From the NCBI RefSeq assembly GCF_016741875.1, contig NZ_JAERRF010000010.1, positions 124,001 to 188,000 on the forward strand: a stretch of DNA of 64,000 nt. Reading direction: 5' to 3'. How positions within the stretch are numbered: the first letter of the stretch is position 1; each line of letters opens with the position of its first letter. The position numbers and the translations under genes are program-made. This DNA comes from Streptomyces coffeae. GTDB taxonomy: Bacteria > Actinomycetota > Actinomycetes > Streptomycetales > Streptomycetaceae. Of the stretch, positions 21,892 through 39,321 are shown piece by piece. The notes under the pieces were generated by a model. It was not told the origin of the DNA. It worked only from the letters and a program-made list of their open reading frames with translations, and did no database searches.

Positions 21892-21971
21892 TGTGAACAT
21901 GTACATCGACGCCGGGCCCGCGGTGGCGCAGCATGGTGGGTTCGGGTCACAACGGTGCCGAGGGGGAAACG

Positions 21972-23093
21972 GTGACGGCTGGCGACAACGGGGGCTCCGC
22001 GCGGGCGGATGTGGTGGTACTCACCGCGCTGGAGGTGGAGTACCGGGCGGTGTGCGCCCATCTTCAGGAGTTGCGCCCGGTGCGGGCCGAGCGGGGTGCC
22101 CTGTTCGAGGTGGGCTCCTTCCGTGAGGGTTCCGTCGAGCGGCGGGTGGCGACCCATATGACCGGCCCCGGCAATCCGGGCGCGGCGGCCGCGGTCGAGC
22201 GGGCCGCGGCGCTGTTCGCGCCCCGCGCGCTGCTGTTCGTCGGGGTGGCGGGCGGGCGCAAGGACGTGGTGCTGGGCGATGTGGTGGCCGCCGACGCGGT
22301 GTACGACTACGAGACCGGCAAGGACACCGAGCAGGGTTTTCTGCCCCGGCAGAAAACCCACCAGTCGGCGTACGGACTGGTGCAGTTGGCCCGGATCGTC
22401 ACCGCGGGCGACACCTGGCAGCGGCGGATCCGCCCGTCGGACGGCTCCCCGCTCCCCCGCGCCCATGTCAAACCGATCGCGGCGGGCGGGCGGGTGGTGG
22501 CACACCATCGCTCGGACGCCGGACGCAGACTGGCGGCGGCCGCGGGAGACGCCGTCGCGGTGGACATGGAGGGCTTCGGCTTCCTGGCGGGCGCGTATCT
22601 CAATCAGCATCTGGACGCCCTGGTGATCCGGGGCATCTCGGATCTGCTGGGCGACAAGGGGGAGGCTCATGACGAGCGCTGGCAGCCCGTGGCGTCCCGG
22701 AATGCCGCCGCCTTCGCGTTCGAGCTGATCGGGCGGCTACCCGAGGAGGCGGGCGCGGCGCGCCCCGCGCCCGCGGCGCATGCCGTCTCACCCTCCGCGC
22801 GCCGTCAGCACAAGCTGACCATTCATCAATTGGGTGTCATGGCCGATGCCTTGCTCGACATTCCCGGGATGACCTCGCCCGCCCGCTGGCAGCAGCTGCT
22901 CGATGAGCTGCCCACCGTCGGCACCGCGGTCGGCCGGCAGTCGGCGAGCCGGGCGGAGGCGCTGGCCCTGCTGCGGACCTGTGAGGCATACGGCGCGCTG
23001 AAGGAGCTGGTGGAGGTGGTGTCCGTGCTCGCGCCGGACACCCCGGCGACGGCCGAACTGGCCCGGCGCATAGCGGAGCTGGGCCGTGCGTGA
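21972..23093 (+). CDS. Nucleosidase (PNP/MTAN superfamily) with C-terminal effector-associated domain
   Basis: A 373-residue cytosolic protein. Residues about 10-245 form a purine-nucleoside phosphorylase/MTAN-like domain: VVVLTALEVEYRAV, GPGNPGAAAAVERA, LLFVGVAGGRKDVVLGDVV, AVDMEGFGF near 196-204 (sugar-binding MEG motif) and IRGISDLL with the catalytic Asp near 222. After a Pro/Ala linker, residues about 278-368 (IHQLGVMADALLDIPGM..., ALALLRTCEAYGALKELVEV) resemble EAD-type adaptor domains. In such systems nucleosidase domains are effectors that degrade nucleotides. GTG at 21972 follows GAGGGGGAA; ATG 21933 is the alternative. The active site looks intact. Confidence 0.82.
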   Translation: MTAGDNGGSARADVVVLTALEVEYRAVCAHLQELRPVRAERGALFEVGSFREGSVERRVATHMTGPGNPGAAAAVERAAALFAPRALLFVGVAGGRKDVVLGDVVAADAVYDYETGKDTEQGFLPRQKTHQSAYGLVQLARIVTAGDTWQRRIRPSDGSPLPRAHVKPIAAGGRVVAHHRSDAGRRLAAAAGDAVAVDMEGFGFLAGAYLNQHLDALVIRGISDLLGDKGEAHDERWQPVASRNAAAFAFELIGRLPEEAGAARPAPAAHAVSPSARRQHKLTIHQLGVMADALLDIPGMTSPARWQQLLDELPTVGTAVGRQSASRAEALALLRTCEAYGALKELVEVVSVLAPDTPATAELARRIAELGRA

Positions 23094-23273: not shown

Positions 23274-24764
23274 ATGGCGGCCATGGGGGAAGGCAGCCTG
23301 GCATCGGTCACCAATCTGGTCACAGCGCTCAAGGAGTTCCGCTGTCTGACGAATCCGGAATCCCGTGAACTGTGTCTGGAACTGGCCGCCAGGGAACTGG
23401 AATCGGCCGTACCGGTCCGCAGCCACCGGGTGACCGACTACTTCCTGGTCGAGCTGGCCCGGGAGTGTCTGGACAATGTGCGGGTGATGCGGGCGCTGCG
23501 CGCGTCGCTGGCGGTGTTGGTCTCGGACGCGGACGCGATGCACCAGCTCGACGCGGTCATGGCGCAGATGACGGCCCGTCCGGCGCTGCCCGTGCCCGCC
23601 ACCGCGGAGCTGCGGTCGCTGCTGGAGGAGCTGGAGATCGGACAGCTGGGGCAGCTGTGCCGGGCGGCGGCGGGCCCGCTCCAGGACGTTCCCCCGGTCA
23701 CCGGCCCCTGGCACGCCTTCGAGGTGCTGAGCCGGATGAACGCCCAGCCGGGCAGTCTGCCGCCGGGGCTCGCCCTGGTGGAGTATCTGGCCGCGTCCGC
23801 ACAGCCGTTGCGCACGGCGGACGCGTTGCGTGCGTGGGCCGATGAGCGGGCCCGGGAGCTGTCCCTGACCTCGCAGCTGAGATCGCTGCGCCAGCAGGTG
23901 GGCCATGCCGCCCCGGCCGAGCCGGTCGACGCCTATCTGGTGATCCGGCTGCTGCGGCAGGAGGAGCCGGGCCGCTATGAGCTCTCGTCCTGGCACCAGT
24001 ACGACCCCACCGGCTGGCATCCGGCCCGGGGCCCGGTCACCCAGGTCACCTCGGCCACCGCCGAGCGGGCCGTCCAGGACCTGGTGTTCGCCGCGGCGGA
24101 GGAGTGGGACGACGCCCGGTCCATCCATGTGGAGTTCATGCTGGGCGCCGATGACCTGAACCTTCCGGTGCATCTGTGGCGCCAGGAGCTGGACAGCGAT
24201 CTGGCCACTCCGCTGTGCATGGACTACCCCGTGGTGATAAGGAGTCTGGAGCGCTGCCAGACCCGCCGCTGGCACCGGTCGTGGAAGCAGCGCTGGCAGG
24301 TCTTCGCCGATCAGCCCCTGCGTTCCAAGCAGCTGGTCATCGACGGCCCGGACCCGGACAGCCCGTCCTCGGGGGACGTCGGCGGGCTGCTGGCCCGGCT
24401 CAAGGCCGATCCGTATGTGGTCGCGCTGGTCCTGAACTCGCCCCCGGGGGCCACCCCCGAAGGGACGAACGAGGCGCTGGCGGCGTGGCGGGCCGGGATC
24501 CCCGTGGTGACCTGGGACCGCCGCCACACCCGCGCCCCCGACCTGGTCCATTGGCTGAGACAAAAACCGGCCGAGGCCAGCGGGAACCTGGCACGGCTCC
24601 GCGAAGCCGTGACAGAGTTACGTCTGGACGCCCATACGATCGACTCCGCGGAGCGGGAGCATCACCCGGGGCAGCATGTGATGCTCGTCTGGGACGACCC
24701 GACCCGTCCCGTGGAGCCGGTGGGGCGGTTGACGGGGCCGGACGAGGGGGTGGGGAGCCGATGA
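23274..24764 (+). CDS. VMAP-type protein: EAD plus VMAP-C (vWA-MoxR-associated protein)
   Basis: A 496-residue protein. Residues about 8-98 form an alpha-helical EAD-like domain (SVTNLVTALKEFRCLTN..., YFLVELARECLDNVRVMRAL), of the same general pattern as the tail of the nucleosidase. Residues 105-205 are a middle helical region, and 215-455 match VMAP-C (VDAYLVIRLLRQEEPG, IHVEFMLGADDLNLPVHLW, YPVVIRSLERC, VVALVLNSPP). VMAP proteins link an effector through EAD-EAD contact to a MoxR ATPase and a vWA partner, here the next two genes. Codon 449 is TTA (24618-24620). The ATG at 23274 has GGGAGGG 6 nt upstream; the stop overlaps the next start by 4 nt. Confidence 0.82.
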   Translation: MAAMGEGSLASVTNLVTALKEFRCLTNPESRELCLELAARELESAVPVRSHRVTDYFLVELARECLDNVRVMRALRASLAVLVSDADAMHQLDAVMAQMTARPALPVPATAELRSLLEELEIGQLGQLCRAAAGPLQDVPPVTGPWHAFEVLSRMNAQPGSLPPGLALVEYLAASAQPLRTADALRAWADERARELSLTSQLRSLRQQVGHAAPAEPVDAYLVIRLLRQEEPGRYELSSWHQYDPTGWHPARGPVTQVTSATAERAVQDLVFAAAEEWDDARSIHVEFMLGADDLNLPVHLWRQELDSDLATPLCMDYPVVIRSLERCQTRRWHRSWKQRWQVFADQPLRSKQLVIDGPDPDSPSSGDVGGLLARLKADPYVVALVLNSPPGATPEGTNEALAAWRAGIPVVTWDRRHTRAPDLVHWLRQKPAEASGNLARLREAVTELRLDAHTIDSAEREHHPGQHVMLVWDDPTRPVEPVGRLTGPDEGVGSR

Positions 24765-25939
24765 GCGAGGCGGAGTCCGCGCGACGGCACAACGGGCGGG
24801 TCCACAACGACCCGGGGTCCACCGCGAATCCACTGCCGTCCGGCGTGCCACGCCCCTGGTGGATCTACCAGGGCACCGGCCGCCCGCTGCACGACGTCGA
24901 CCTGGAAGAGATCCTTCCGCCGCCTCCTCCCTGGCGTACCTTCGGCGGGGTCTCGGCCTGCCCTCCGGACGCCGAGGCGCCCGCGGGCGCGTTAGCGGAC
25001 CGGGACGGGGCGCCGACCGAACCCCCGGCACCGCCGGAGGAGGAGCAGGACGCGGCCCGGCGGCTGGGAGCCACCCCGCTGGGCCTGCGGGCCGGCGCCG
25101 AGGAGGCCGACGTCGTCAACGCGGCGCTCATCCTCAGGCGTCCGCTCCTGGTGACCGGGCGCCCCGGTACGGGCAAGTCCACCCTGGCCTACCGCATCAG
25201 CCGGGAACTGGGCCTCGGCCGGGTGCTGCGCTGGCCGATCACCACCCGCACCACCCTGCGGTCCGGGCTGTACGGCTACGACGCCGTCGGCCGGGTGCAC
25301 GCGGCCGCGGCCGGACAGGCGGCGGAGCGGGACACCCCGGAGCCGGGCCCCGAGGACATCGGGGACTTCCTCCAACTGGGGCCGCTGGGCACGGCGATGC
25401 TGCCGTACCGCCTCCCCCGTGTGCTGCTCATCGACGAATTCGACAAGAGCGATATCGATCTGCCCAATGACCTGCTCGACATCTTCGAGGCCGGTGAGTA
25501 CGCCATCCCCGAGCTGGTGCGCGTCCGCAGGCGCCGGCCGGCCGTATCGGTCCTCACCGACGACCCCGACCGCAGTACCGTCATCGCCTCGGGCCGGGTG
25601 CGCTGCCGTGCCTTCCCGGTCGTGGTCATCACCAGCAACGGTGAGCGGGAGTTCCCGCCCGCGTTCCTGCGCCGCTGCCTCCAGCTGCGACTGCCCGACC
25701 CGGACGCGGACCGGCTCGCCGCGATCGTGGCCGCTCATCTGGGGCGGGCCGACGATCCGCGCGCCCAGGAGCTCATCCAGATGTTCCTGGAGCGCAGTGA
25801 GCTCGAAGGAGGGCTCGCCGCCGACCAGTTGCTCAACGCGGTGTATCTGGTGACGTCCCAGTCCCAGGTGCCCGGTCCCGAGTGGGAGGAGCTCCTGCAC
25901 TCCGTCTGGCACCGGCTGGACGCAGCGGGCCCGACATGA
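24761..25939 (+). CDS. MoxR-type AAA+ ATPase
   Basis: A 392-residue ATPase. Residues 1-110 are proline-rich and disordered-looking (EEILPPPPPW). The AAA+ module has Walker A GRPGTGKST near 133-141, Walker B LLIDEFDKSDIDLPNDLLDI, sensor 1 ITSN in VVVITSNGEREF and the arginine region FPPAFLRRCLQLRLP. MoxR proteins remodel vWA-domain partners, and the next gene carries such a domain. Start and stop both overlap neighbours by 4 nt (ATGA), so translation of the three genes is coupled. Codon 78 is TTA (24992-24994), within the linker. Confidence 0.88.
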   Translation: MSEAESARRHNGRVHNDPGSTANPLPSGVPRPWWIYQGTGRPLHDVDLEEILPPPPPWRTFGGVSACPPDAEAPAGALADRDGAPTEPPAPPEEEQDAARRLGATPLGLRAGAEEADVVNAALILRRPLLVTGRPGTGKSTLAYRISRELGLGRVLRWPITTRTTLRSGLYGYDAVGRVHAAAAGQAAERDTPEPGPEDIGDFLQLGPLGTAMLPYRLPRVLLIDEFDKSDIDLPNDLLDIFEAGEYAIPELVRVRRRRPAVSVLTDDPDRSTVIASGRVRCRAFPVVVITSNGEREFPPAFLRRCLQLRLPDPDADRLAAIVAAHLGRADDPRAQELIQMFLERSELEGGLAADQLLNAVYLVTSQSQVPGPEWEELLHSVWHRLDAAGPT

Positions 25940-28900
25940 CACACGACCCAGGCGGCGGGTCCCCCGGGCACGGCCCACGGGGCCTGGACTGGCAGCAGAT
26001 CGCCGACGCCGTATGGCTGGCCGTCTGCAAGGCCGAGACGGACCGCGGACCGGACCGGGCCGGCCCCGATCCGCTCACCCGGCCCCCGGAGGCGGACGCA
26101 CCGCCGCCGGATGACGGTCCGTCCGGTGCACCGCCGTCGGAGCGCGAGCCGGAGGAGGAGCGGGCGCCCGAGCCCGATCTGACCGTCTCCGCCCCCCTGC
26201 CCGCCGAGGTCGCCGCAGCCGGGGACCATCCGGCCGCCGCGACGGAACCGGCCCTGGCCACCCATGTTGTCCTGCCCGCCCCGCGGTGCTCCGCCCCCGG
26301 ACCGATGCTCGCCGAGCGTGCGCTGTCCCGGGCGCTGCGCCCCCTCAAGCGCACCACGCCCTCCCCGGTCGCGCTGGAGGTCGACGAGGAGGCCACGGCC
26401 GAGCGTGCGGCGCGCGAGGGGCTGTGGGTGCCCGAGTGCGTTCCGGTGCGGGAGCGCTGGATGGACGCGGTCCTCGTGGTGGACTGCGGACGATCGATGG
26501 TGGTCTGGCGCCGGACGGCGACCCGGCTGGTCACCGTGTTGCAACGGACCGGCGCCTTCCGGGACGTACGGGTGCACCGGATCGACAGCGACCGCCTGTT
26601 ACCCGACGACGGGGAGGGCGGGCCGGCCGGGCGCGGGGACCGTCCGGGGCCGGGTTCGCCGGTGGCCGGAATGTCGCCGCGGGACCGGCGGGCGGTGCTG
26701 GTGCTCACCGACGGCATCGGCGCGGCCTGGGCCGACGAGAGCGCCCAGCGCGCGCTGGCCCGCTGGGCGCGGAGTGCCTCGGTGGCCGTACTGCACGTAC
26801 TGCACCAGGGCCGCTGGGCGCACACCGGAGTGGCGCCGGAGCGGGTGCGGGTGCGCGCCCCCGGGCCGGGCGCCCCCAACGCCACCTGGGCTCCGGCCGA
26901 TGGCGGCTCCTGGCCCGGGGGCGAGCCGCCGGTGCCGGTGCTGGAGCTGGACGCGCGGTGGCTGGCCGGCTGGGCGCAGCTGGTGGCCCGGCCCTCGGCC
27001 CGTGGCCAGGAGACGCTGGCCCTGCTGCCCGGCGTACCGGCCGAGCGCTGGGAGCGCGAACCGGAACCGAGCGCCCTGGACCGGGTCTTCCGGTTCCGTA
27101 CGACGGCCTCGCCCAGCGCCTTCCGGCTGGCGTCCCGGCTGGCGGCGGCTCCGTTGAACATTCCGGTGATGGAGTTTGTGCAGGGGATCCACCACCCGGA
27201 GGGCAGCCCCGGCGATCTGGCGGAGATCCTGCTGGGCGGGCTGCTGCGCAAGGTGGGGACGGCCGACCCCATGGACGAGACGGGCATCGGCTACGAATTC
27301 CACAGCGGGGTACGGGAGCTGCTGCTGTCGGCCGGGATGCGGGACGAGTCGCTGTACATCCTGCGCAGCGTTCTGGACCGGCTGGGAAAGCGCTGGCAGC
27401 CGCTGCATCTGCTGCGCGATCTGCTCAACCACCCTTCGGAGCCGGTGCGGGATCTGCCCACCACCGAGCGACTGCTGCCGTACCTCAGACTCCAGGAGCA
27501 GGTCTACCAGGCGCTGTCGGGCCCGTATCTCGAAGGCGCGCGCTCTTTTCGCGCTCTTGTCCTCGCCCATCAGACGGTCGCCCCTATGGGCGAACACCCC
27601 CCGGATCCAGTTGATGACAGGTCCGGCAGGGGAAAAAATGTGGTCCCCGATGCGGCTGAGGCGGTTGCCGTGACTGACTCCACCACTCCCCGATCCACCG
27701 CGCGTTCCCATGCCGACGATTCACCCGCCCCGCCGTCGCACCGCGCGCCGGGTCCGGCGGGAGAGCACCTGAGAGGAAGTTTTGTGTCCGTGACCGCTGC
27801 TCGGTCCCTGCCCGCCGTGGAGGAGCGCCGGGCCGGGGATCCCCCGTCCATCTGGGGCAATGTGCCGCCCCGGAACAACAACTTCACCGGACGGCAGACG
27901 CTGCTCGACGTGCTCCACGAGCGGCTGCGCAGTGAGGGCACGGCGGCCGTGCTGCCGGAGGCGCTGCACGGCCTCGGCGGAGTCGGCAAGTCCCAGATCG
28001 CCCTGGAGTACGTCCATCAGCACGCCGCGGACTACGACGCGGTGTGGTGGATCCCGGCCGAGCGCACCGAGCAGATCCGCCAGGCGCTGGTCCAGCTCGC
28101 CGACCGGCTCGGTCTCCAGGCGGGCATGGAGGCCAACACGGCCGTGCCGACCGTGCTGGACGCGCTGCGCACCGGGCGGCCCTGCCGCAACTGGCTGCTG
28201 GTCTTCGACAATGCCGAGGAGCTGGATACGGTCCGGCCGTTCTTCCCCGCGGGCGGTCCCGGCCGCATCCTGGTCACCTCGCGCAACGCCCAGTGGTCGC
28301 GGGCCGCCCGCACTGTCGAGGTGGATGTCTTCGAGCGCGAGGAGAGCATCGAGCTGCTGCTGCGGCGGGGTCCGGAGCTGCCGCGGGACCAGGCGGACCG
28401 GGTGGCCGACGCGCTCGGGGATCTGCCGCTGGCCATCGAGCAGGCGGCGGCCTGGCTGACCGAGACCGGCATGCCGGTCAATGAGTACCTCCAGGTGTTC
28501 GAGGACGAGCGGTCCGATGTCTCCACCCGTCGCAGCGAACTGCTGGCGGCGGGGGTGCCGGTCGACTATCCCGAACCGGTGGCCGCCGCCTGGAACATGT
28601 CGCTCCGGCGGCTGGCCGAGACCCATCCCGGCGCGCTGCAACTGCTCCAGATGTGCTCCTTCTTCGCTCCCGAGCCGATTTCGCGGCGGCTGTTCTCCGG
28701 GGTCCGGGGGGTTTCGCTCTCCCCCGAGCTGTCGGAGGTGCTCCAGGACCCCATCAAACTGGGCCATGCCATCCGTGAGATCAATCGCTACGCCCTGATC
28801 AAAATCAATCACCGCAGCAACACCATCGAAATGCACCGGCTGGTGCAGGCAGTGCTGATCGGCCAGATGTCCCCGCAGCAGCAGGCGGATATGAAGCACA

Positions 28901-30342
28901 GCGCGCATGTGCTGCTCGCCTACGGCGACCCCAATGACGTGGCACCGCCCAACTGGGGCCGGTACGCCGATCTGCTGTCGCATGTCCGCGCCTCCCGGGC
29001 CATGGAGTGCGACGACAAATGGGTGCGGCAGATGGTGCGCAACCTGGTGCGGTTCCTCTATGTGTGGGGAGACCACGAGGGCGCGCTCGAACTGGGCCGT
29101 CAGGTACGGGAGAAGTGGCTCGAGACGCTCGGCGAGGACAGCCCGGAGTCGCTGGCGGTCTCCCGGACCCTGGGTCATGTCCTCACCGTCCTCGGCTACT
29201 TCGAGCAGGCGCGGGAGCTCAACAGCCGCACCCTGGAGCTCCAGCGCGCCGCCGAGGGCGACGACCACGAGAACACCCTCGTCACCCTGGGCGCGGTGGC
29301 CAGCGACGCGCGCTTCCAGGGCGACTTCGCGCGCTCGCTGGAGCTGGAGCGGGACCGCTGGAGCAGGACCCGGCGGCTGTTCGGCGAGGAGGACCCGTAC
29401 ACCATCGCCGCGGCCAACGACTACGCCCTGGGGCTGCGGGCGGCCGGGGACTACGCGCGCGCCCGGGAGGTGGACGAGAGCGCCCACAACATCGCCGAGG
29501 TCATCCTCGGCGAGGACAATCTGCTGGCCATCCTGCTGGAGACCAACGTCAGCATCGACGTCCGCGAATGCGGTGACTACATGACCGCCCGCGGCATGCT
29601 GGAGCAGACCTGCGCGCGGATCCGCAGAGTGCTTCCGCAGAACGCGCCCATCGGTGTCTACGCGCTGCGCAATCTCGCCGTGGCGCGCCGCAAGGCGGGC
29701 GACCACGAAGGCGCCCTGGAGATCAGCCAGGAGGTTCTGGAGCGCTACCGGCTGCGCTACGCCGAGCCCAATCTCAACATCTCCACGACCGCGCTCAACC
29801 TGTCGATGGATCTGCGGCAGACGGCCGATCTCGACGGCGCCCGCGAACTCGGCCTGAAGTGTGTGGAGGACATGCGGGACGCGCTGGGGCCGCGCCACCC
29901 GGTGACCCTGAGCGCGGCGCTCGACCTCGCCATCACCTTGCGGCTGCTGGGCGAGACGGAGGAGGCGCTCCGGCTGAACGAGCGGACGCTGCCGCTGCTC
30001 GTCGAGCGGCTGGAGGCCGACCACCCGGTCTCGCTGGCCTGCGCGATCAACCTCGCCAGCGATCACTTCACGCTGGCGGACTACGAGGAGGCCAGGCGGC
30101 TGGACACCGAGACCCTGGCGGCCTGCCGGACCCGGCTGGGCGAGGACCACCCCACCACCCTCGCCTGCGCGCTCAATCTCTCCGGTGATCTGCGGGCGCT
30201 GGGCGAGGGCAGATCGGCGGAGGAACTGCACCATGACGCGCTCACCCGGATGCGGCAGGTGCTGTCCGCCGGCCATCCGGCCACGGTGGCGGCGGCCCGG
30301 GGCATCCGCGCGGACTGCGATGTGGAGGCCATGGCCTTCTGA
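25936..30342 (+). CDS. FxsT-like protein: vWA-like, NB-ARC STAND ATPase and TPR repeats
   Basis: A 1468-residue cytosolic STAND protein. Order: short helix 17-34 (LDWQQIADAVWLAVCKAE); acidic Pro-rich linker to about 125; SAV_2336/vWA-like domain about 170-330 with VVDCGRSM (a MIDAS-like DxGxS) and VLVLTDGIG; a helical block near 390-500; NB-ARC from VPPRNNNFTGR near 643, with P-loop HGLGGVGKS near 677-685, Walker B WLLVFDNAE, ILVTSRN and LGDLPLAIEQAAAWL; then a winged helix and about ten TPR units from 1020 to the end (repeated DHPxTLxCAxNL). Architecture and neighbours match the FxSxx-COOH system TPR protein FxsT. Codon 222 is TTA (26599-26601). It converges with the hydroxylase gene across 18 nt. 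Confidence 0.82.
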   Translation: MTHDPGGGSPGHGPRGLDWQQIADAVWLAVCKAETDRGPDRAGPDPLTRPPEADAPPPDDGPSGAPPSEREPEEERAPEPDLTVSAPLPAEVAAAGDHPAAATEPALATHVVLPAPRCSAPGPMLAERALSRALRPLKRTTPSPVALEVDEEATAERAAREGLWVPECVPVRERWMDAVLVVDCGRSMVVWRRTATRLVTVLQRTGAFRDVRVHRIDSDRLLPDDGEGGPAGRGDRPGPGSPVAGMSPRDRRAVLVLTDGIGAAWADESAQRALARWARSASVAVLHVLHQGRWAHTGVAPERVRVRAPGPGAPNATWAPADGGSWPGGEPPVPVLELDARWLAGWAQLVARPSARGQETLALLPGVPAERWEREPEPSALDRVFRFRTTASPSAFRLASRLAAAPLNIPVMEFVQGIHHPEGSPGDLAEILLGGLLRKVGTADPMDETGIGYEFHSGVRELLLSAGMRDESLYILRSVLDRLGKRWQPLHLLRDLLNHPSEPVRDLPTTERLLPYLRLQEQVYQALSGPYLEGARSFRALVLAHQTVAPMGEHPPDPVDDRSGRGKNVVPDAAEAVAVTDSTTPRSTARSHADDSPAPPSHRAPGPAGEHLRGSFVSVTAARSLPAVEERRAGDPPSIWGNVPPRNNNFTGRQTLLDVLHERLRSEGTAAVLPEALHGLGGVGKSQIALEYVHQHAADYDAVWWIPAERTEQIRQALVQLADRLGLQAGMEANTAVPTVLDALRTGRPCRNWLLVFDNAEELDTVRPFFPAGGPGRILVTSRNAQWSRAARTVEVDVFEREESIELLLRRGPELPRDQADRVADALGDLPLAIEQAAAWLTETGMPVNEYLQVFEDERSDVSTRRSELLAAGVPVDYPEPVAAAWNMSLRRLAETHPGALQLLQMCSFFAPEPISRRLFSGVRGVSLSPELSEVLQDPIKLGHAIREINRYALIKINHRSNTIEMHRLVQAVLIGQMSPQQQADMKHSAHVLLAYGDPNDVAPPNWGRYADLLSHVRASRAMECDDKWVRQMVRNLVRFLYVWGDHEGALELGRQVREKWLETLGEDSPESLAVSRTLGHVLTVLGYFEQARELNSRTLELQRAAEGDDHENTLVTLGAVASDARFQGDFARSLELERDRWSRTRRLFGEEDPYTIAAANDYALGLRAAGDYARAREVDESAHNIAEVILGEDNLLAILLETNVSIDVRECGDYMTARGMLEQTCARIRRVLPQNAPIGVYALRNLAVARRKAGDHEGALEISQEVLERYRLRYAEPNLNISTTALNLSMDLRQTADLDGARELGLKCVEDMRDALGPRHPVTLSAALDLAITLRLLGETEEALRLNERTLPLLVERLEADHPVSLACAINLASDHFTLADYEEARRLDTETLAACRTRLGEDHPTTLACALNLSGDLRALGEGRSAEELHHDALTRMRQVLSAGHPATVAAARGIRADCDVEAMAF

Positions 30343-30360
30343 GCCGGCCGCGGGGAGCGT

Positions 30361-32199
30361 TCAGCGGCCATGGGTTCCGATCCACCGCGCGAGGGCGATC
30401 GGATCGGGCCCCGGGCCGGGGCCGGGCGTCCGCTCCGGCCCCGCGCCGTATAACGCCCGGTGGACGGCGAGCACCAGCTCCGGGCGGCTCAGCAGCGCCT
30501 GTCGCGCGGTGCCGTCCGGCATGCTGAGCGCAAGCCCCGCCCAGGCACTGAGATCGTCCGGGGCCGTCGCCAGCCGGGCCCGGTAGCCGTGCAGCGCGGC
30601 CTCGGTCCGGTCCGCGGCCCAGTCGAGATCGGCCCCGGCGGGTGTGGTGCCGTCGGGGAGCGTTGCGTCCCGGTCCGCGTCGAGGCGGGCGAACGCCACC
30701 GGGTCCATGAGCCGGTGGCGGACGAGCGCGGGGCGCACCGGGATCCCGGTGGGAGCCGGCCGGACGGCGGTGGCGGGCAGATCCCGCGGAGGGGCGTTGC
30801 CCGCCCGCCAGGCCCGCGCCCAGCGGGTGGTCTGCGCGGGGTCGGGCCTGAGGTGGCGCAGCCGGTAGACGAGTTCGGCGTCGATGAGCACATCCGCCGC
30901 CCAGCGCCGCGGCAGCGACGGGACGGGCTCGGCCGACCACGCGGCGAGCCGCTCTGCCACGAGCTGGAGGAACCTTTCACCGAGCGGTGTGAGCCGGGCG
31001 TGGGCGAGGAGTGTCCGCAGCCCCCGCGCGGTCTGCGCACGGCGCAGGGCGAACTCGAACGCGGCGGTGTCCCGGGCGGGCCCGGCCTCCGCGAGCTGCC
31101 ACCGGTCCCGCCAGAACCCCGTGACACCGAGGAACGCGTACACCCCGTGCAGCAGACCCCGCAGCGGTCGGGGGTCCAGCCGCCAGGGCGCGTAGTGGAC
31201 CTCCTCCAGGCCCCCTTCGATCAGCGGCACCAGATCCATCAGTGCGCTGAGCTTGATGTGCTGCGCCTCGTGCACCAGCGACGCGGCCAGCGCGAGCGGG
31301 TCGTCGGGGCGGCCGAGCAGCACACATCCGCGGGCTTCCGGGGAGGAGGCGCTGAACAGATCGGGAGGGGCGGTGTAGGGCACGGGGACGAGGGAGCCCA
31401 GACATGCGGCGATCCCCCGGGGGTCCACCTGCGACTGCTCCGCGACCAGCCGCCATGCGGTGTCGAAACACCCCTGCCAGTGCTTCCACTCGTCGTCGGT
31501 GAGTCTTTCCGGCGGGGTGGTGCGCAGGAAATCGCGATAGGGGTCGACATCGTCGAGGAAGGGCTCGCAGATATGCCCCTGGTGTTCGCCGCGCAATCGC
31601 CGGAGGCCGTACCATCCCGGCGCATTCCGGGTGAGGTCGAAAGGCAGCGGGACCGTATGCGGTCCGGCGGTCAGCGTGGCCTTCCCCTCCGGGGTGCGGA
31701 CGACCTCGGCGGTTTCCGCCGTCCGGTCCGGGAGGCAGGCGAAACCGAGGGCGGGCAGGATCACCCCGCCCTCGCGCACCGCCACCGTGGTACGGAAGTC
31801 GATTCCCGCGAGAAGTGCGGCCGAAGCGGCCATGGCATAGAGATAGCCGGTTTCGGTCCACAGTGGCGTTTTCACCGGTTCCCGGCCGCGCAGCCCGCGT
31901 AGACAGCGGTTGAGCCAGGTGCCCGCCTGGGGGTGCAGCAATACCCGCTCCACGGCCGCCGGGGCCGCACGCTCCGCCCGGATCAGAAGGCGCCACGGCT
32001 CCCGGGCGTCGGGGAGTGGGCCCGGTAACGCGGGATGGTCGGCGGCGATGCCGACCAGGGCGCGCAGCAGGAGCATGGTCCGGCTGCGCTGCCCGGATCG
32101 CAGCTCGGCCACCGACGACACACCGCCCGAACCCCGGCCCAACTCGGTGAAGCACCGCTCCGAAAGACGATGAAAGGAACGCTCAGCCGTCATGGCCAC
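30361..32199 (-). CDS. HExxH-motif protein, putative 2-oxoglutarate-dependent peptide beta-hydroxylase
   Basis: A 612-residue protein whose central motif is SLVHEAQHIKL near 304-314 (HExxH). It matches the HEXXH-domain proteins that accompany FxSxx-COOH peptides, now interpreted as iron- and 2-oxoglutarate-dependent peptide hydroxylases; this is family knowledge. No signal peptide, so modification would be cytosolic. The N-terminal 150 residues are helical (SERCFTELGRGSGG); the C-terminal half is Arg/Pro-rich and helical. GTG at 32199 or ATG at 32193 are both possible. Two TTA codons lie at positions 58 and 583. It follows the small precursor-like gene by 28 nt on the same strand. Confidence 0.8.
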   Translation of the reverse strand: MAMTAERSFHRLSERCFTELGRGSGGVSSVAELRSGQRSRTMLLLRALVGIAADHPALPGPLPDAREPWRLLIRAERAAPAAVERVLLHPQAGTWLNRCLRGLRGREPVKTPLWTETGYLYAMAASAALLAGIDFRTTVAVREGGVILPALGFACLPDRTAETAEVVRTPEGKATLTAGPHTVPLPFDLTRNAPGWYGLRRLRGEHQGHICEPFLDDVDPYRDFLRTTPPERLTDDEWKHWQGCFDTAWRLVAEQSQVDPRGIAACLGSLVPVPYTAPPDLFSASSPEARGCVLLGRPDDPLALAASLVHEAQHIKLSALMDLVPLIEGGLEEVHYAPWRLDPRPLRGLLHGVYAFLGVTGFWRDRWQLAEAGPARDTAAFEFALRRAQTARGLRTLLAHARLTPLGERFLQLVAERLAAWSAEPVPSLPRRWAADVLIDAELVYRLRHLRPDPAQTTRWARAWRAGNAPPRDLPATAVRPAPTGIPVRPALVRHRLMDPVAFARLDADRDATLPDGTTPAGADLDWAADRTEAALHGYRARLATAPDDLSAWAGLALSMPDGTARQALLSRPELVLAVHRALYGAGPERTPGPGPGPDPIALARWIGTHGR

Positions 32200-32227
32200 C
32201 TTGTTCCGGAAAGCGAGGGATGCGGCA

Positions 32228-32419
32228 CTATTCCGAGGTTCCCTTGCTCCCGCAATTCTGTCCGGAAGTCGAGGAGTTCACCAGGGTCGGTGGAAATTGG
32301 ACCGCGTCGAGCAGCCGCTGGGTCACCGAAGAAAGCCCATCGCTCCGGTCAAGGTCTTCGAGGGTCGCTCCCGAAAGGTCCAGCAGCTCCGTCTCGACCC
32401 CGGTCGCGGCTCGCTCCAT
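32228..32419 (-). CDS. Candidate RiPP precursor peptide, FxsA-like leader without FxSxx end
   Basis: A 63-residue peptide with a strong GGAGGGGG Shine-Dalgarno before ATG 32419. Residues 10-40 (TELLDLSGATLEDLDR, then SSVTQRLLDAV) resemble the DLTxxPLxxL...RVL part of FxSxx-COOH precursors. Residues 44-63 are different: Pro-Pro followed by a Ser/Thr/Asn/Gly-rich tail with one Cys and a terminal Ser-Glu, and no FxSxx motif in this or the other two frames. The adjacent hydroxylase makes this tail the likely modified core. GC at third positions is roughly three quarters, lower than in neighbouring genes. The call rests on position, size and leader resemblance, not on detected modification. Confidence 0.7.
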   Translation of the reverse strand: MERAATGVETELLDLSGATLEDLDRSDGLSSVTQRLLDAVQFPPTLVNSSTSGQNCGSKGTSE

Positions 32420-32505
32420 GACACCGTCCCCCTCCGGACGCTACACACCGGCTCACGTGAGGCACCCCTCATGGTGACCTACCCATTTTGATTGCGAAAG
32501 GGTGA

Positions 32506-32534
32506 ACACAGCCAGTCGGCGCCTGGCTTGTCAA
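32506..32534 (-). promoter_or_regulatory. Promoter for precursor-hydroxylase pair
   Basis: On the minus strand TTGACA (32529-32534) is followed after 17 nt by TGTGTT (32506-32511). The -35 is consensus and the -10 weak. It lies about 90 nt before the precursor start and after a small hairpin that ends the preceding lipoprotein transcript. Confidence 0.5.
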
Positions 32535-32544
32535 GATTTTCGGA

Positions 32545-32561
32545 CACCTCTACGCGAGGTG
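32545..32561 (-). terminator. Small hairpin between lipoprotein and precursor genes
   Basis: CACCTC (32545-32550) pairs with GAGGTG (32556-32561) around a 5-nt loop, with an A/T-rich stretch following on the minus strand. It lies 30 nt downstream of the lipoprotein stop. Confidence 0.5.
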
Positions 32562-32590
32562 ACATCGGTCCGGTATGCCGCTGTCAGATG

Positions 32591-33304
32591 TCAGGTGCCC
32601 GCTCCGGAACGGACCGCTTCGACATCGAAGACCCCTCCGCAGACGCGGAAGGAGTGCGCCGCCGTCTTCATGGCCCGGAGTGAGTCCGGCGGGTAGGCCC
32701 GGATGGCCGCGGCGGGCTTCCAGCACGGGGTGTCGCTCACGCCCTCGTTGAGGGTGTGCAGGACCGCGGAGGCCCTGCCGCCCGGCGGCAGGGAGACGGT
32801 GGAGTGCGAGGGGCCCCGCCGGACGGCGGGGGCGCCTATGAGGGCGCCGTCGGCGTCGAGCAGGGACACCCCGGGGAATCCGGTGAGGGTGCAGGCCGAG
32901 GTCGAGGTGTTGGTCAGGACCAGCGGCAGATACACATTGCCCGCGCCCACATCCTTGCGGCCCACGGTCAGCTTCAGCGCTTGCGTGGAGCAGATGCGGC
33001 GTACGGCCGGGGCGGCCGCGGAGTCCGTGGCGGACCGGGCGCGGGACGGTGCGGAGTGGTCACGCGGGGCGGCGGCGCCCTGGGACGCGTCCGAGGAATC
33101 CGATGCGCGCGATGTGTCCGAGGAATCCGCCGCGTCCGAGGTGTGGGCGGCGCCGGAGGTGTCGGAGCGTGTCCAGGCCCCCGCCCCGGAGTCGGTGCCG
33201 CACCCCGTGGCCGTGGCCAGCGCGCCGATGAGCAGCGCGGATAAGACCAGCGGCCGGGAGCGGGTGGTGGTACGCCGTGCTGCCGTGCCGTGCCGTTGTG
33301 CCAT
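32591..33304 (-). CDS. DUF4232-type lipoprotein with Ser/Asp-rich linker
   Basis: A 237-residue putative lipoprotein. The signal peptide (LVLSALLIGALATATGC) ends in a lipobox with Cys followed by GTD. Residues about 45-100 are a low-complexity linker of SDxSDxS units (SDTSRASDSSDAS), then the DUF4232 domain with four cysteines in ICSTQALK, SACTLTGFPGVSLL, DTPCWKPA and FRVCGGVF, expected to form disulfides outside the cell. ATG 33304 has GGGGAGG 7 nt upstream. Codon 21 is TTA (33242-33244), shared with the neighbouring conflict genes. It lies upstream of the precursor on the same strand but behind its own terminator; a functional link is unproven. Confidence 0.82.
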   Translation of the reverse strand: MAQRHGTAARRTTTRSRPLVLSALLIGALATATGCGTDSGAGAWTRSDTSGAAHTSDAADSSDTSRASDSSDASQGAAAPRDHSAPSRARSATDSAAAPAVRRICSTQALKLTVGRKDVGAGNVYLPLVLTNTSTSACTLTGFPGVSLLDADGALIGAPAVRRGPSHSTVSLPPGGRASAVLHTLNEGVSDTPCWKPAAAIRAYPPDSLRAMKTAAHSFRVCGGVFDVEAVRSGAGT

Positions 33305-33757
33305 GAGTGACCTCCCCAGGTCAGCCATCGGCGGGGCACCGACCGCGAGGGCGCGTGCCCCGATGCTTCCTGTCCATCCCCCTTGGCTCACCCTTCCCCG
33401 CTTTGACTCCGTTATGTCACCCGGTACATTGACCGCATTCCTCCGGCAATTCCGCATAGCGCACACCTCGCCGCAATCGGTCGAATCGGAAATGTAGTGA
33501 TGCAGGTCACAGAGGAATCCGCCAACTGATCGATTTCCAGGGAGAGATCACCGACGGCAACGGATTCCTTTGTGGCGTAACGTTTCTGACAACCATTCGG
33601 AAAGAAACGCTCTCGCTCTCCGGAGGAGACCCGACGCACAGAGTGACACCCGGGTGTGGGGTCCGGAGACCGGTGCCTTGCTCAACACCCCGAGACCTTG
33701 TCGTGACCAAATCGATGTGTTTACTGTGCGGCTCTCGTCGCATTCCATGCGCGGGCC
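33305..33757. other. Gene-free region upstream of the riboswitch
   Basis: About 450 nt with lower GC than the surroundings between the divergent lipoprotein and cell-wall hydrolase genes. It must contain the promoters for both, and the hydrolase start point should be near its right end. I see no conserved ORF and no further structured RNA that I can name. Confidence 0.5.
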
Positions 33758-33962: not shown

Positions 33963-35189
<1,227 letters not shown>

Positions 35190-37585: not shown

Positions 37586-38410
37586 TCACTCCTTGACGGC
37601 GCCGCCGAGCATCCCTTCGATGAAGCGGCGCTGGAGCGCCACGTAGACCACCACCACCGGCAGCGCGATCAGCACCGAGGCCGCCGCGAGCAGGGCCGCG
37701 TCGGAGCTGTGCTGTCCCTGGAAGAAGGCGAGGCCCAGCGGGACGGTGCGATGGGCCTCGTCGCTGACCATGACCAGTGCCATCAGGAACTCGTTCCAGG
37801 TCCACATGAAGGTAATGACCACCATGGTGGAGATCGCCGGGCGGCCCATCGGGACGAGCACCCGCCACAGGGTGGTCCAGGTGTCCGCGCCGTCGATCCG
37901 GGCCGCCTCGATCACCGCCCGTGCACTGCTCCGGAAGTAGGTGCGCATCCAGAACACGCCGAAGGCCAGGGACTGCGCCGTCTGCGGCAGGATCAACGCC
38001 CAGTAGGTGTCGGTGAGTCCGGCCCAGCGCAGATCGAAGTAGAGCGGGACGACCAGGGCCTCCTGCGGCAGGGTGAGCCCGATGACGAAGAGGTGGAACA
38101 GCACGGTGGAGCCGGGGAAGCGCATCACGCCGAAGGCGTACGCGGCCAGGACGGCCAGCACCGTGGTGACCGCCACGACGACCGCGGTGACCAGCAGCGA
38201 GTTGCCGAGGTAGGTGCCGAAGTGGCCACGGCTCCAGGCGTCGGTGAAGTTGCTCCAGTGCGGTCCGTCCTCGGGCAGCGAGAACCCGGTGTCCAGGGAG
38301 TCCTGTGAGCCGAAGGCCGTGGAGAGGATGCCGATCACCGGGGTGAGCGCGATGACGGCGAACAGGGTGAGGATGCCGTAGGTGACACCGCGTTCCAGAC
38401 GTGTGGTCAT
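37586..38410 (-). CDS. Carbohydrate ABC transporter permease, MalG-like
   Basis: A 274-residue inner-membrane permease with six predicted helices and the EAA coupling loop VIEAARIDGADTWTTLWRVL. It is the last gene of the operon formed by kinase, binding protein and two permeases; its ATG at 38410 overlaps the MalF-like stop by 4 nt. No ATPase gene is present. Confidence 0.92.
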   Translation of the reverse strand: MTTRLERGVTYGILTLFAVIALTPVIGILSTAFGSQDSLDTGFSLPEDGPHWSNFTDAWSRGHFGTYLGNSLLVTAVVVAVTTVLAVLAAYAFGVMRFPGSTVLFHLFVIGLTLPQEALVVPLYFDLRWAGLTDTYWALILPQTAQSLAFGVFWMRTYFRSSARAVIEAARIDGADTWTTLWRVLVPMGRPAISTMVVITFMWTWNEFLMALVMVSDEAHRTVPLGLAFFQGQHSSDAALLAAASVLIALPVVVVYVALQRRFIEGMLGGAVKE

Positions 38411-39321
38411 GACCGCCGCCCTTCGACGAGCCGGGAGACCGTGACGGTCAGGACGAAGATCAGCACCGTGAGGGCCACTCCGACGGCGGCGGCCGAGCCG
38501 ACCTGGTTGGTCTCGAAGGCCCGGTGGTAGACCTCGTAGGCCGGTACGGACGTGGCGTTTCCGGGGCCGCCGCTGGTGGTGATGTAGATCAGGTCGAAGT
38601 TGCGCAGCCCCGCGATGATGGTCAGGGTCAGTGCCACCGCGATCTGCGGCCGGAGGCCGGGCAGGGTGACGGTGAGGAACTCCCGGACCGGCCCGGCGCC
38701 GTCCATCCGCGCCGCCTCGTACAGCTCACGCGGGATCCGCTGGGCCCCGGCGAGGAAGAGGACCATGCACAGTCCGGTGCCGACCCAGGTGCCGACCACA
38801 CCGACCGCGGGCAGCGCCCAGGTGTAGTCGCCGAGCCAGGGGCGGGCCAGTGAGCCGAGGCCGACGGCCCGGAGGATGTCGTTGAGCAGTCCGTCCGGGG
38901 CGAGGAGGGAACGCCAGGCCACCCCGACCACGATCAGCGCCAGCACCTGGGGCAGGAACAGCACGGTGCGGAAGAAGGTCATCCCGCGCACCCGGACCCG
39001 GGACATCACCGCGGCCAGCAGCAGTCCGATGGCCACCGGCAGGGCCGAGTAGAACACGAGCAGCAGCAGGGCGTGGGCGAACGGGGCGCGCAGCGAGGGA
39101 TCGCTGAACAGATCGCGGTAGTTGTCGAACCCGGCCGGGGTGGCCACGGTCAGCCCGTCCCAGTGCACGAAGGACAGCCAGACCGACTGGCCGAAGGGGT
39201 AGAGCAGGAAGACGGCGTACACCGCGAGGGCGGGCAGGAGGTAGAGATAGCCGATGGCGCGGGGCTCACCGGGTGCCCGCCGCCGGTAGCCGCTCTTCGG
39301 CGCGGCGGGACGGGCCTTCAT
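38407..39321 (-). CDS. Carbohydrate ABC transporter permease, MalF-like
   Basis: A 304-residue permease. A short cytoplasmic start (RRRAPGEPRAIGYLYLLPALA) leads into TM1; the EAA loop is YEAARMDGAGPVREFLTVTL. The ATG at 39321 overlaps the binding-protein stop by 4 nt. It pairs with the MalG-like protein to import a sugar delivered by the lipoprotein encoded upstream. Confidence 0.92.
   Translation of the reverse strand: MKARPAAPKSGYRRRAPGEPRAIGYLYLLPALAVYAVFLLYPFGQSVWLSFVHWDGLTVATPAGFDNYRDLFSDPSLRAPFAHALLLLVFYSALPVAIGLLLAAVMSRVRVRGMTFFRTVLFLPQVLALIVVGVAWRSLLAPDGLLNDILRAVGLGSLARPWLGDYTWALPAVGVVGTWVGTGLCMVLFLAGAQRIPRELYEAARMDGAGPVREFLTVTLPGLRPQIAVALTLTIIAGLRNFDLIYITTSGGPGNATSVPAYEVYHRAFETNQVGSAAAVGVALTVLIFVLTVTVSRLVEGRRS

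What the first reader, a model, noticed from the sequence alone, without database searches (positions are those of the whole stretch)
32228..32419. FxsA-like RiPP precursor without the FxSxx C-terminus
The 63-residue peptide has the leader-like TELLDLSGATLEDLDR block and a Shine-Dalgarno, and sits 28 nt before the HExxH gene. Its tail (PPTLVNSSTSG then QNCGSKGTSE) has no FxSxx, so a FxsB cyclophane is not expected and no FxsB gene is near. Residues open to beta-hydroxylation (Asn, Gln, Ser, Thr) dominate the tail. This may be a distinct, hydroxylase-only RiPP class.
Basis: partly seen in the sequence, partly recalled or inferred. Interest (0 to 1): 0.8.

Follow-up and report, generated by a model that had tools for sequence, protein, structure and literature searches.

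The report
Hydroxylase-only peptide with conserved cysteine tail
A small Streptomyces peptide and the iron enzyme predicted to oxidise it sit inside an immune-like gene cluster; the peptide belongs to a kind described from genomes in 2020, but its tail, in which a single cysteine is held constant, is a variant not described there in the text read.

Summary
The ORF is real: minus strand 32228-32419, 63 codons, directly upstream of an alpha-ketoglutarate (aKG) HExxH oxygenase gene, and kept there in 25 other Streptomyces loci. Its leader is related to FxsA leaders; the tail is not FxSxx, and no FxsB reaches the family cut-off in this genome. Peptide-enzyme pairs without radical SAM are not new: Kaur et al. 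2020 described them (RxD and acidic tails) in vWA-MoxR-VMAP ternary conflict systems, and this locus has that architecture, with a vWA-NB-ARC-TPR protein convergent to the pair. New here is the tail: neither RxD nor acidic, but a small-residue stretch whose only invariant residue behind a Pro anchor is one Cys (26 of 26), 11-14 residues on, with 0-7 residues after it. The matching enzymes form one clade (SH-aLRT 93; core 100). Most likely the leader docks on the enzyme, Fe/aKG oxidises the tail, and the product acts on the NB-ARC protein. Gene, kinship, synteny and fold are shown; chemistry, site and role are inferred.

The parts
32228..32419 (-). precursor peptide gene, 63 codons plus stop
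32288..32419 (-). FxsA-like leader, residues 1-44 (MERAATGVETELLDLSGATLEDLDRSDGLSSVTQRLLDAVQFPP)
   Evidence: coordinates; leader HMM and profile-profile matches; pN/pS 0.43
32231..32287 (-). tail, residues 45-63 (TLVNSSTSGQNCGSKGTSE)
32252..32254 (-). codon of Cys56, the only invariant residue behind the Pro anchor (26 of 26)
32420..32437 (-). ribosome-binding region CCGGAGGGGGACGGTGTC
32468..32553 (-). conserved upstream block (TTGACA ... CCCTTTCGCAATCAA ... GGTAGGTCACCATG), possible promoter or operator; function not shown
   Evidence: alignment of 26 upstream regions, coordinates; no sigma-70 consensus hit
30361..32193 (-). aKG-HExxH-type oxygenase gene (ATG start; longest ORF begins at GTG 32199)
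   Evidence: TIGR04267 174 bits, cut-off 40; AlphaFold2 pLDDT 93.9, matches SjiH Z 42.3 and ChlH Z 28.2
31258..31272 (-). HEAQH motif of the oxygenase
25936..30342 (+). vWA (SAV_2336 N-term) - NB-ARC - TPR protein, convergent with the oxygenase gene
   Evidence: NF041121 436.6 bits, NF040586 867.3 bits; Pfam NB-ARC, TPR; start
24761..25939 (+). MoxR-like AAA+ ATPase
   Evidence: AAA_5 26.3 bits, cut-off 22; start
23274..24764 (+). EAD2 - VMAP-M0 - VMAP-C protein
21933..23093 (+). nucleoside phosphorylase (PNP_UDP_1) - EAD2 effector-like protein

Best explanation
The peptide is the substrate of the neighbouring aKG-HExxH oxygenase, and the pair is the peptide-modifying arm of a vWA-MoxR-VMAP ternary conflict system. 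The FxsA-like leader docks on the enzyme; the tail, a flexible small-residue stretch, reaches the iron site so that a residue at a fixed distance from the leader, most simply the invariant Cys or one near it, is oxidised with Fe(II), O2 and aKG. The modified peptide then binds the vWA, NB-ARC or TPR part of the convergently encoded NLR-like protein and sets its activation, with PNP-EAD2 as a possible effector. Shown: ORF, conservation, leader kinship, synteny, enzyme family and predicted fold, Cys constancy, clade of the tail type. Inferred: enzyme-substrate relation (strong), action on the NB-ARC protein (moderate), site of oxidation (weak).
For: 87 of 94 HExxH loci (5 of the 94 are duplicates) have a leader-HMM peptide within about 700 nt upstream on the same strand; six more have one elsewhere in the locus. 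A profile of 26 Cys-tail peptides hits 20 of 391 genomes of the order, and all 19 non-self loci read carry a HExxH gene on the same strand. NB-ARC matches in 85 of 93 loci, duplicates included; vWA, NB-ARC and TPR in 25 of 25 Cys-clade loci, VMAP and MoxR in 22 of 25, the three misses being short loci. FxsB of L117, used as query, matches none of the other 92 loci at E<=1e-5. Enzyme: TIGR04267 174 bits; HE..H in 94 of 94 loci, which were chosen by other motifs or by the peptide; fold match to SjiH (Z 42.3, 406 residues) and ChlH (Z 28.2, 319 residues). Tail: Cys 26 of 26, one per tail, 11-14 residues from the Pro anchor although 0-7 residues follow it. Tail type follows the enzyme tree: Cys label 3 changes against 26.1 in shuffles. 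Leader-guided oxidation by relatives PflC/PosC is published.
Against: No biochemistry. The oxidised residue is unknown; in PosA only the Ala of ARMD was critical although the whole motif is conserved, so an invariant Cys need not be the site: it could be what the target protein binds. No maturation or export gene could be assigned: the nearby M23/Rpf-type gene (33978-35189) and sugar-type ABC permeases (37586-39321) look like peptidoglycan and sugar functions and were not shown to belong. No experiment on the ternary system was seen in the passages read; PADLOC models gave no hit for peptide, oxygenase, NB-ARC or VMAP proteins and only partial hits for PNP and MoxR. Six of the 87 leader-HMM hits score under 13 bits, and 15 precursors were seeds of that HMM. 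Eight of 93 loci have no NB-ARC match.
Confidence: 0.6

Rival explanations
1. The HExxH protein is a metallopeptidase that cuts the precursor to release the C-terminal peptide as toxin or signal, as Kaur et al. proposed in 2020.
For: Zincin-like kinship: aminopeptidases and LTA4 hydrolase appear at Z 5.1-5.9; published proposal; PflC has proteolytic activity without the leader.
Against: The best structural matches by far are aKG oxygenase domains ChlH and the related SjiH (Z 28 and 42); published relatives are Fe/aKG oxygenases. No invariant cleavage motif other than Pro and Cys in the tail.
Confidence: 0.15
2. One reading: the enzyme beta-hydroxylates Asn, Gln, Ser or Thr residues of the tail, and the Cys is incidental or serves only the target. 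(This is a variant of the best explanation, not exclusive of it.)
For: PosC hydroxylates strings of Gln, and hydroxylated Asn is reported too; over 26 tails Ser is 23%, Thr 10%, Asn 8% of residues and Asn is in 24 of 26.
Against: No Asn, Gln, Ser or Thr position behind the Pro anchor is invariant; Cys is.
Confidence: 0.35
3. The pair makes a secreted RiPP natural product and only happens to lie beside the ternary system.
For: RiPP-like leader and tail; aKG-HExxH enzymes occur in RiPP clusters.
Against: NB-ARC match in 85 of 93 loci, from several actinobacterial families; vWA-NB-ARC-TPR in 25 of 25 Cys-clade loci.
Confidence: 0.12
4. A degenerate FxsA: the radical-SAM step was lost and the peptide is decaying.
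For: Leader kinship with FxsA; fast tail (pN/pS 0.77).
Against: Leader under constraint, Cys 26 of 26, tail type follows the enzyme clade; RxD-tail sisters without FxsB match in other families.
Confidence: 0.04

Closest known systems
Peptide-processing arm of vWA-MoxR-VMAP ternary conflict systems, RxD and acidic types (Kaur et al. 2020, PMC7159879)
   Same: small fast-diverging peptide plus zincin-like enzyme, no radical SAM, AP-ATPase (NB-ARC) and TPR fused to the vWA protein
   Different: tail has no RxD and no acidic run (none of 87 precursors here has four contiguous acidic residues in its last 30); it has an invariant Cys; the enzyme is assigned here to the aKG oxygenases, not the peptidases
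FxsA/FxSxx-COOH cyclophane RiPPs (TIGR04268) with FxsB
   Same: leader kinship; HExxH and TPR/NB-ARC partners
   Different: no FxSxx, no model match, no FxsB over cut-off in the genome
PflA/PflC and PosA/PosC (PMC12636437; first part and passages read)
   Same: leader-dependent aKG-HExxH enzyme acting without radical SAM; conserved C-terminal element
   Different: NHLP leader, MNIO-nitroreductase partner, Gln string and ARMD tail; conflict-system genes not mentioned in what was read
SjiH (PDB 22ob) and ChlH (PDB 8s5f)
   Same: fold of the oxygenase (Z 42.3 and 28.2)
   Different: ChlBH is a radical-SAM fusion that needs a cyclophane; nothing in print on SjiH was found in one search

Membership tests
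FxSxx-COOH peptides (TIGR04268) | C-terminal FxSxx | tested here: not met
   tail QNCGSKGTSE
FxSxx-COOH peptides (TIGR04268) | model score of at least 28 bits | tested here: not met
   no match at E<=1; Cys-tail relative L074 13.8 bits
FxSxx-COOH peptides (TIGR04268) | FxsB radical SAM enzyme (TIGR04269) | tested here: not met
   own genome best 63.3 bits, cut-off 370
FxSxx-COOH peptides (TIGR04268) | homologous leader | tested here: met
   hhalign of Cys-type against 6 FxsA: E 8.7e-5, probability 60, while 50 column shuffles reach at most 8.25; through RxD leaders 4.7e-13 and 1.5e-9
aKG-HExxH peptide oxygenases (TIGR04267) | model score of at least 40 bits | tested here: met
   174.4 bits
aKG-HExxH peptide oxygenases (TIGR04267) | HExxH motif and the conserved APWR..PRP region | tested here: met
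   HEAQH; APWRLDPRP
aKG-HExxH peptide oxygenases (TIGR04267) | fold of ChlH/SjiH | tested here: met
   Z 28.2 and 42.3 on a predicted model
aKG-HExxH peptide oxygenases (TIGR04267) | Fe(II)/aKG-dependent oxidation of a peptide | not testable with these tools
   needs biochemistry
VMAP-ternary conflict system with peptide-processing arm | VMAP, MoxR and vWA genes | tested here: met
   VMAP-C 142.8, VMAP-M0 90.3, AAA_5 26.3 bits; SAV_2336_NTERM 436.6 bits. That the SAV_2336 N-term domain holds the vWA part is recalled, no Pfam vWA model matched
VMAP-ternary conflict system with peptide-processing arm | AP-ATPase plus TPR fused to the vWA protein when radical SAM is absent | tested here: met
   one 1468-aa protein, with the caveat on vWA above
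VMAP-ternary conflict system with peptide-processing arm | tail of FxSxx, RxD, acidic or FtsH-associated type | tested here: not met
   the first three are absent from the window tail; the FtsH-associated tail is not defined in the text read

The most novel reading that the evidence does not exclude
The invariant Cys is the oxidation site: beta-hydroxylation of Cys would give a thiohemiacetal that can lose H2S and leave a formylglycine-like aldehyde, or alpha-oxidation at or next to it would cut the backbone to an amide. The enzyme would place the Cys by counting 11-14 residues from the leader, and the electrophilic or trimmed peptide would be the ligand that arms or restrains a bacterial NLR-like ATPase, tying immune readiness to O2, iron and aKG.
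Probability: 0.13. Interest if true: 0.85.

Novelty: new variant of a known kind. Interest (0 to 1): 0.52.

Why it matters
Peptide arms of bacterial NLR-like ternary systems were proposed in 2020 with the enzyme read as a peptidase. The comparison here re-reads that enzyme as an aKG oxygenase by sequence and predicted fold, adds a Cys-tail type with a simple spacing rule, and gives a minimal two-gene pair (63-aa peptide, 610-aa enzyme) that can be tested by co-expression and mass spectrometry. If the modified peptide acts on the NB-ARC protein, it would be a ribosomal, oxygen-dependent ligand of a bacterial immune-type switch.

Tried and rejected
FxsA with a sequencing error: rejected, 26 loci agree. 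The plus strand of the stated coordinates: reads something else. A hidden radical-SAM partner: none over the FxsB cut-off, none in the window. A second, FxSxx-type peptide in this genome: no match over cut-off among 150 of 670 candidates scored; the window peptide is not among the listed matches either. The DUF4232 gene (32591-33466) and the M23/Rpf gene (33978-35189) as system parts: found in 20 and 15 of 25 Cys-clade loci, absent from L029, L080, L081, L094 and L124, so treated as bystanders. PNP-EAD2 as an exclusive partner of Cys tails: matches in 19 of 25 Cys-clade loci (four of the six misses, L078, L026, L073, L029, end before its place; L094 and L124 do not), but L028 with another tail also scores 150 and nine further loci 43-57. 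Likeness of RxD tails to ARMD and P-R(V/T)DN of published substrates: noted, not used as evidence, since R, M and D are individually dispensable for PosC. Promoter and terminator scan 30200-32800: nothing found. SjiH in print: one search, nothing relevant among the 20 listed. Lentzea/Nocardia (4 loci..PLITC) and Kibdelosporangium (2 loci) tails also hold Cys but lie elsewhere on the enzyme tree and are not in the 26. Enzyme residues fixed in the Cys clade (P287 and D322 in 26 of 26, A312 in 24 of 26, each in at most 10% of the other 61) are a lead only, since SjiH also has Asp at the D322 place in the alignment.

Limits. One search kept the best 80 of 412 related stretches, so shares of tail types hold for relatives of this enzyme only. 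Tail labels are loose patterns; L130 counts as RxD by chance (its sisters L099, L109, L131 are 'other'). L075 (cut contig) and L076 (frames split) were dropped from the tree with the five duplicates. The tree is a quick search without bootstrap, with long branches flagged. Only 6 of 30 fetched FxsA loci gave a sequence under my filter. A Cys-tail type in print: the listing of one aimed search, listings and passages of PMC8195603 show none; the supplementary tables of Kaur et al. were not opened (no look-ups allowed), so it may stand there.

Full report
What is there. On the minus strand of the window, 32228-32419 encodes a 63-aa peptide with a ribosome-binding region kept in close relatives. 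The next gene downstream is a 610-612-aa protein with HEAQH, TIGR04267 at 174 bits (cut-off 40) and a sub-cut-off match (101 of 225 bits) to the FxsBH 'lost HExxH' model. Convergent to it runs a 1468-aa protein with an SAV_2336-type N-terminus, NB-ARC and TPR (NF040586, 867 bits; [quoted passage not shown] That is the gene content of a vWA-MoxR-VMAP ternary conflict system, with the caveat that the vWA reading of the SAV_2336 domain is recalled.

Is it more than chance? tblastn of the peptide against 392 genomes of the genus finds 15 (own included) at E<=0.01, 11 of them below 1e-13. In all 15 a HExxH gene follows on the same strand; the NB-ARC-TPR gene is there in 14, and the contig of the 15th (G001) ends inside it. 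In 18 close orthologues the leader has pN/pS 0.43 and the tail 0.77; shifted sense frames of the leader give 1.02 and 1.61, antisense frames 0.95, 0.46 and 1.79, the 0.46 being the frame that shares third positions. A profile of 26 orthologues finds 20 of 391 genomes of the order, all in this genus (1 of 10 genera), and in a sample of the class only the own genome (1 of 296). All 19 non-self loci read (one further place got no locus) carry a HExxH gene on the same strand within about 3 kb; only three of the 19 (L181, L182, L183) have the Cys tail, the others share the leader but end otherwise. So the Cys type itself was seen in 4 of these 391 genomes.

Wider family. With an alignment of 15 HExxH proteins, a scan of one genome for each of 84,980 species gave 412 relatives, of which 79 distinct loci were kept. 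A leader HMM, seeded with 15 of these peptides, finds a peptide within about 700 nt upstream of the HExxH frame in 87 of 94; of the other seven, L075 is cut at the contig end and six have a leader-bearing peptide elsewhere in the locus. Six of the 87 score under 13 bits and are doubtful. By loose tail patterns the 87 are: Cys 37, RxD 28, SGS-like 5, other 17. NB-ARC matches in 85 of 93 loci other than the window. FxsB, sought with the one of L117, is in L117 only; its peptide ends in FDSII and is the only one of ten tested to pass the FxSxx-COOH model (46 bits).

The Cys tail. The 37 Cys labels are 26 different loci of one enzyme clade, five duplicates of these, four Lentzea/Nocardia and two Kibdelosporangium loci. 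On a tree of 87 enzymes the 26 form one side of a branch (SH-aLRT 93; without L094 and L124, 24 rows, 100); the label as a whole needs 3 changes against 26.1 in shuffles, as low in 0 of 500. In the 26 the invariant columns are M1, T10, E11, L12, L20, R35, V40, P43 and C56 (window numbering): behind the Pro anchor only Cys. It stands 11-14 residues from that Pro, while 0, 1, 2, 6 or 7 residues follow it, so its place looks measured from the leader side, not from the C-terminus. Eight tails end in the Cys itself (L072-L074, L029/L080/L081, L094/L124: three branches of the tree); the window, L018, L063 and L020 carry seven further residues, L019 six. Gln is in 11, Asn in 24, Ser in 25 and Thr in 25 of 26 tails. 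All 25 Cys-clade loci besides the window have vWA, NB-ARC and TPR matches; VMAP and MoxR are in 22, the other three loci being short.

Leader kinship. Profile comparison links Cys-type and RxD-type leaders (E 4.7e-13), RxD-type and FxsA (1.5e-9), and Cys-type and FxsA directly but weakly (8.7e-5, probability 60; best of 50 column shuffles 8.25; only 6 FxsA sequences). The peptide is FxsA-related by leader but fails the FxSxx-COOH family on tail, score and partner.

The enzyme. AlphaFold2 on an alignment of 50 sequences gives pLDDT 93.9 and pTM 0.93. Its best structural matches are SjiH-Ni (22ob; Z 42.3, 2.7 A over 406 residues, 30% identity) and the ChlH domain of ChlBHExxH (8s5f; Z 28.2, 3.3 A over 319 residues); the next row is Z 9.1 over 87 residues. 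HE..H is present in 94 of 94 loci, which were picked by other motifs or by the peptide. This supports an Fe/aKG oxygenase rather than the peptidase assumed in 2020, though PflC can also cut peptides. P287 and D322 are fixed in 26 of 26 Cys-clade enzymes and rare in the other 61, a lead for specificity.

What is known. From Kaur et al. 2020 (one section read in full; passages): about 20% of actinobacterial VMAP-ternary systems carry a zincin-like 'MPTase' and a small fast-diverging protein; four tail types; a SPASM radical SAM with FxSxx; AP-ATPase and TPR fused to the vWA protein in the RxD and acidic types. The present locus has that architecture, with a tail of none of the three types defined in the text. 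From PMC12636437 (first of six parts; passages): PflC and PosC hydroxylate Gln strings and remove ARMD oxidatively, with a role of the leader. From PMC13060819 (passages): PesO hydroxylates Pro; earlier members hydroxylate His, Asp, Phe and Gln. Morishita et al. 2024 is known here only as cited in these.

Mechanism. Best supported: leader docking, oxidation of the tail at a fixed distance, use of the product by the NB-ARC-TPR protein. Shown are gene, kinship, synteny, predicted fold and Cys constancy; inferred are catalysis, site and target. The chemistry of a Cys site (thiohemiacetal, aldehyde, or backbone cut) follows from general knowledge and is a proposal.

Verdict.

Noticed in passing
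window 32468-32553: A block upstream of the peptide gene (TTGACA, CCCTTTCGCAATCAA, GGTAGGTCACCATG on the minus strand) is unusually constant in the 18 nearest relatives and partly in L029/L080/L081; possible regulatory site.
   Followed up: partly
L110, L111, L120, L127, L136: A further tail type without RxD or Cys (such as ..LSTIGGSSGS) belongs to one enzyme clade with full support.
   Followed up: no
L101, L106, L107, L116: Lentzea/Nocardia precursors with long tails that end in PLITC and hold a further Cys; separate enzyme clade.
   Followed up: no
L128, L134: Two HExxH genes on opposite strands of one locus, each with a leader peptide, one tail ..RFD, the other ..GGYNPQRDERD or ..GGYQPQRDAYDE.
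   Followed up: no
L089, L092, L133 and other RxD loci: RxD tails of ternary systems resemble ARMD of PflA/PosA and P-R(V/T)DN of the pes peptides, substrates of characterised aKG-HExxH enzymes; a common recognition element is possible.
   Followed up: partly
window 30361-32193: P287 and D322 of the oxygenase (612-aa numbering) are fixed in the Cys clade; D322 lies just behind the HExxH motif, where 46 of 61 other enzymes have His.
   Followed up: partly
L076: In the BJHW01 draft of Streptomyces violaceusniger NBRC 13459 the peptide reading is split over two frames and the HExxH frame is short (437 codons); draft quality or decay cannot be told apart.
   Followed up: no
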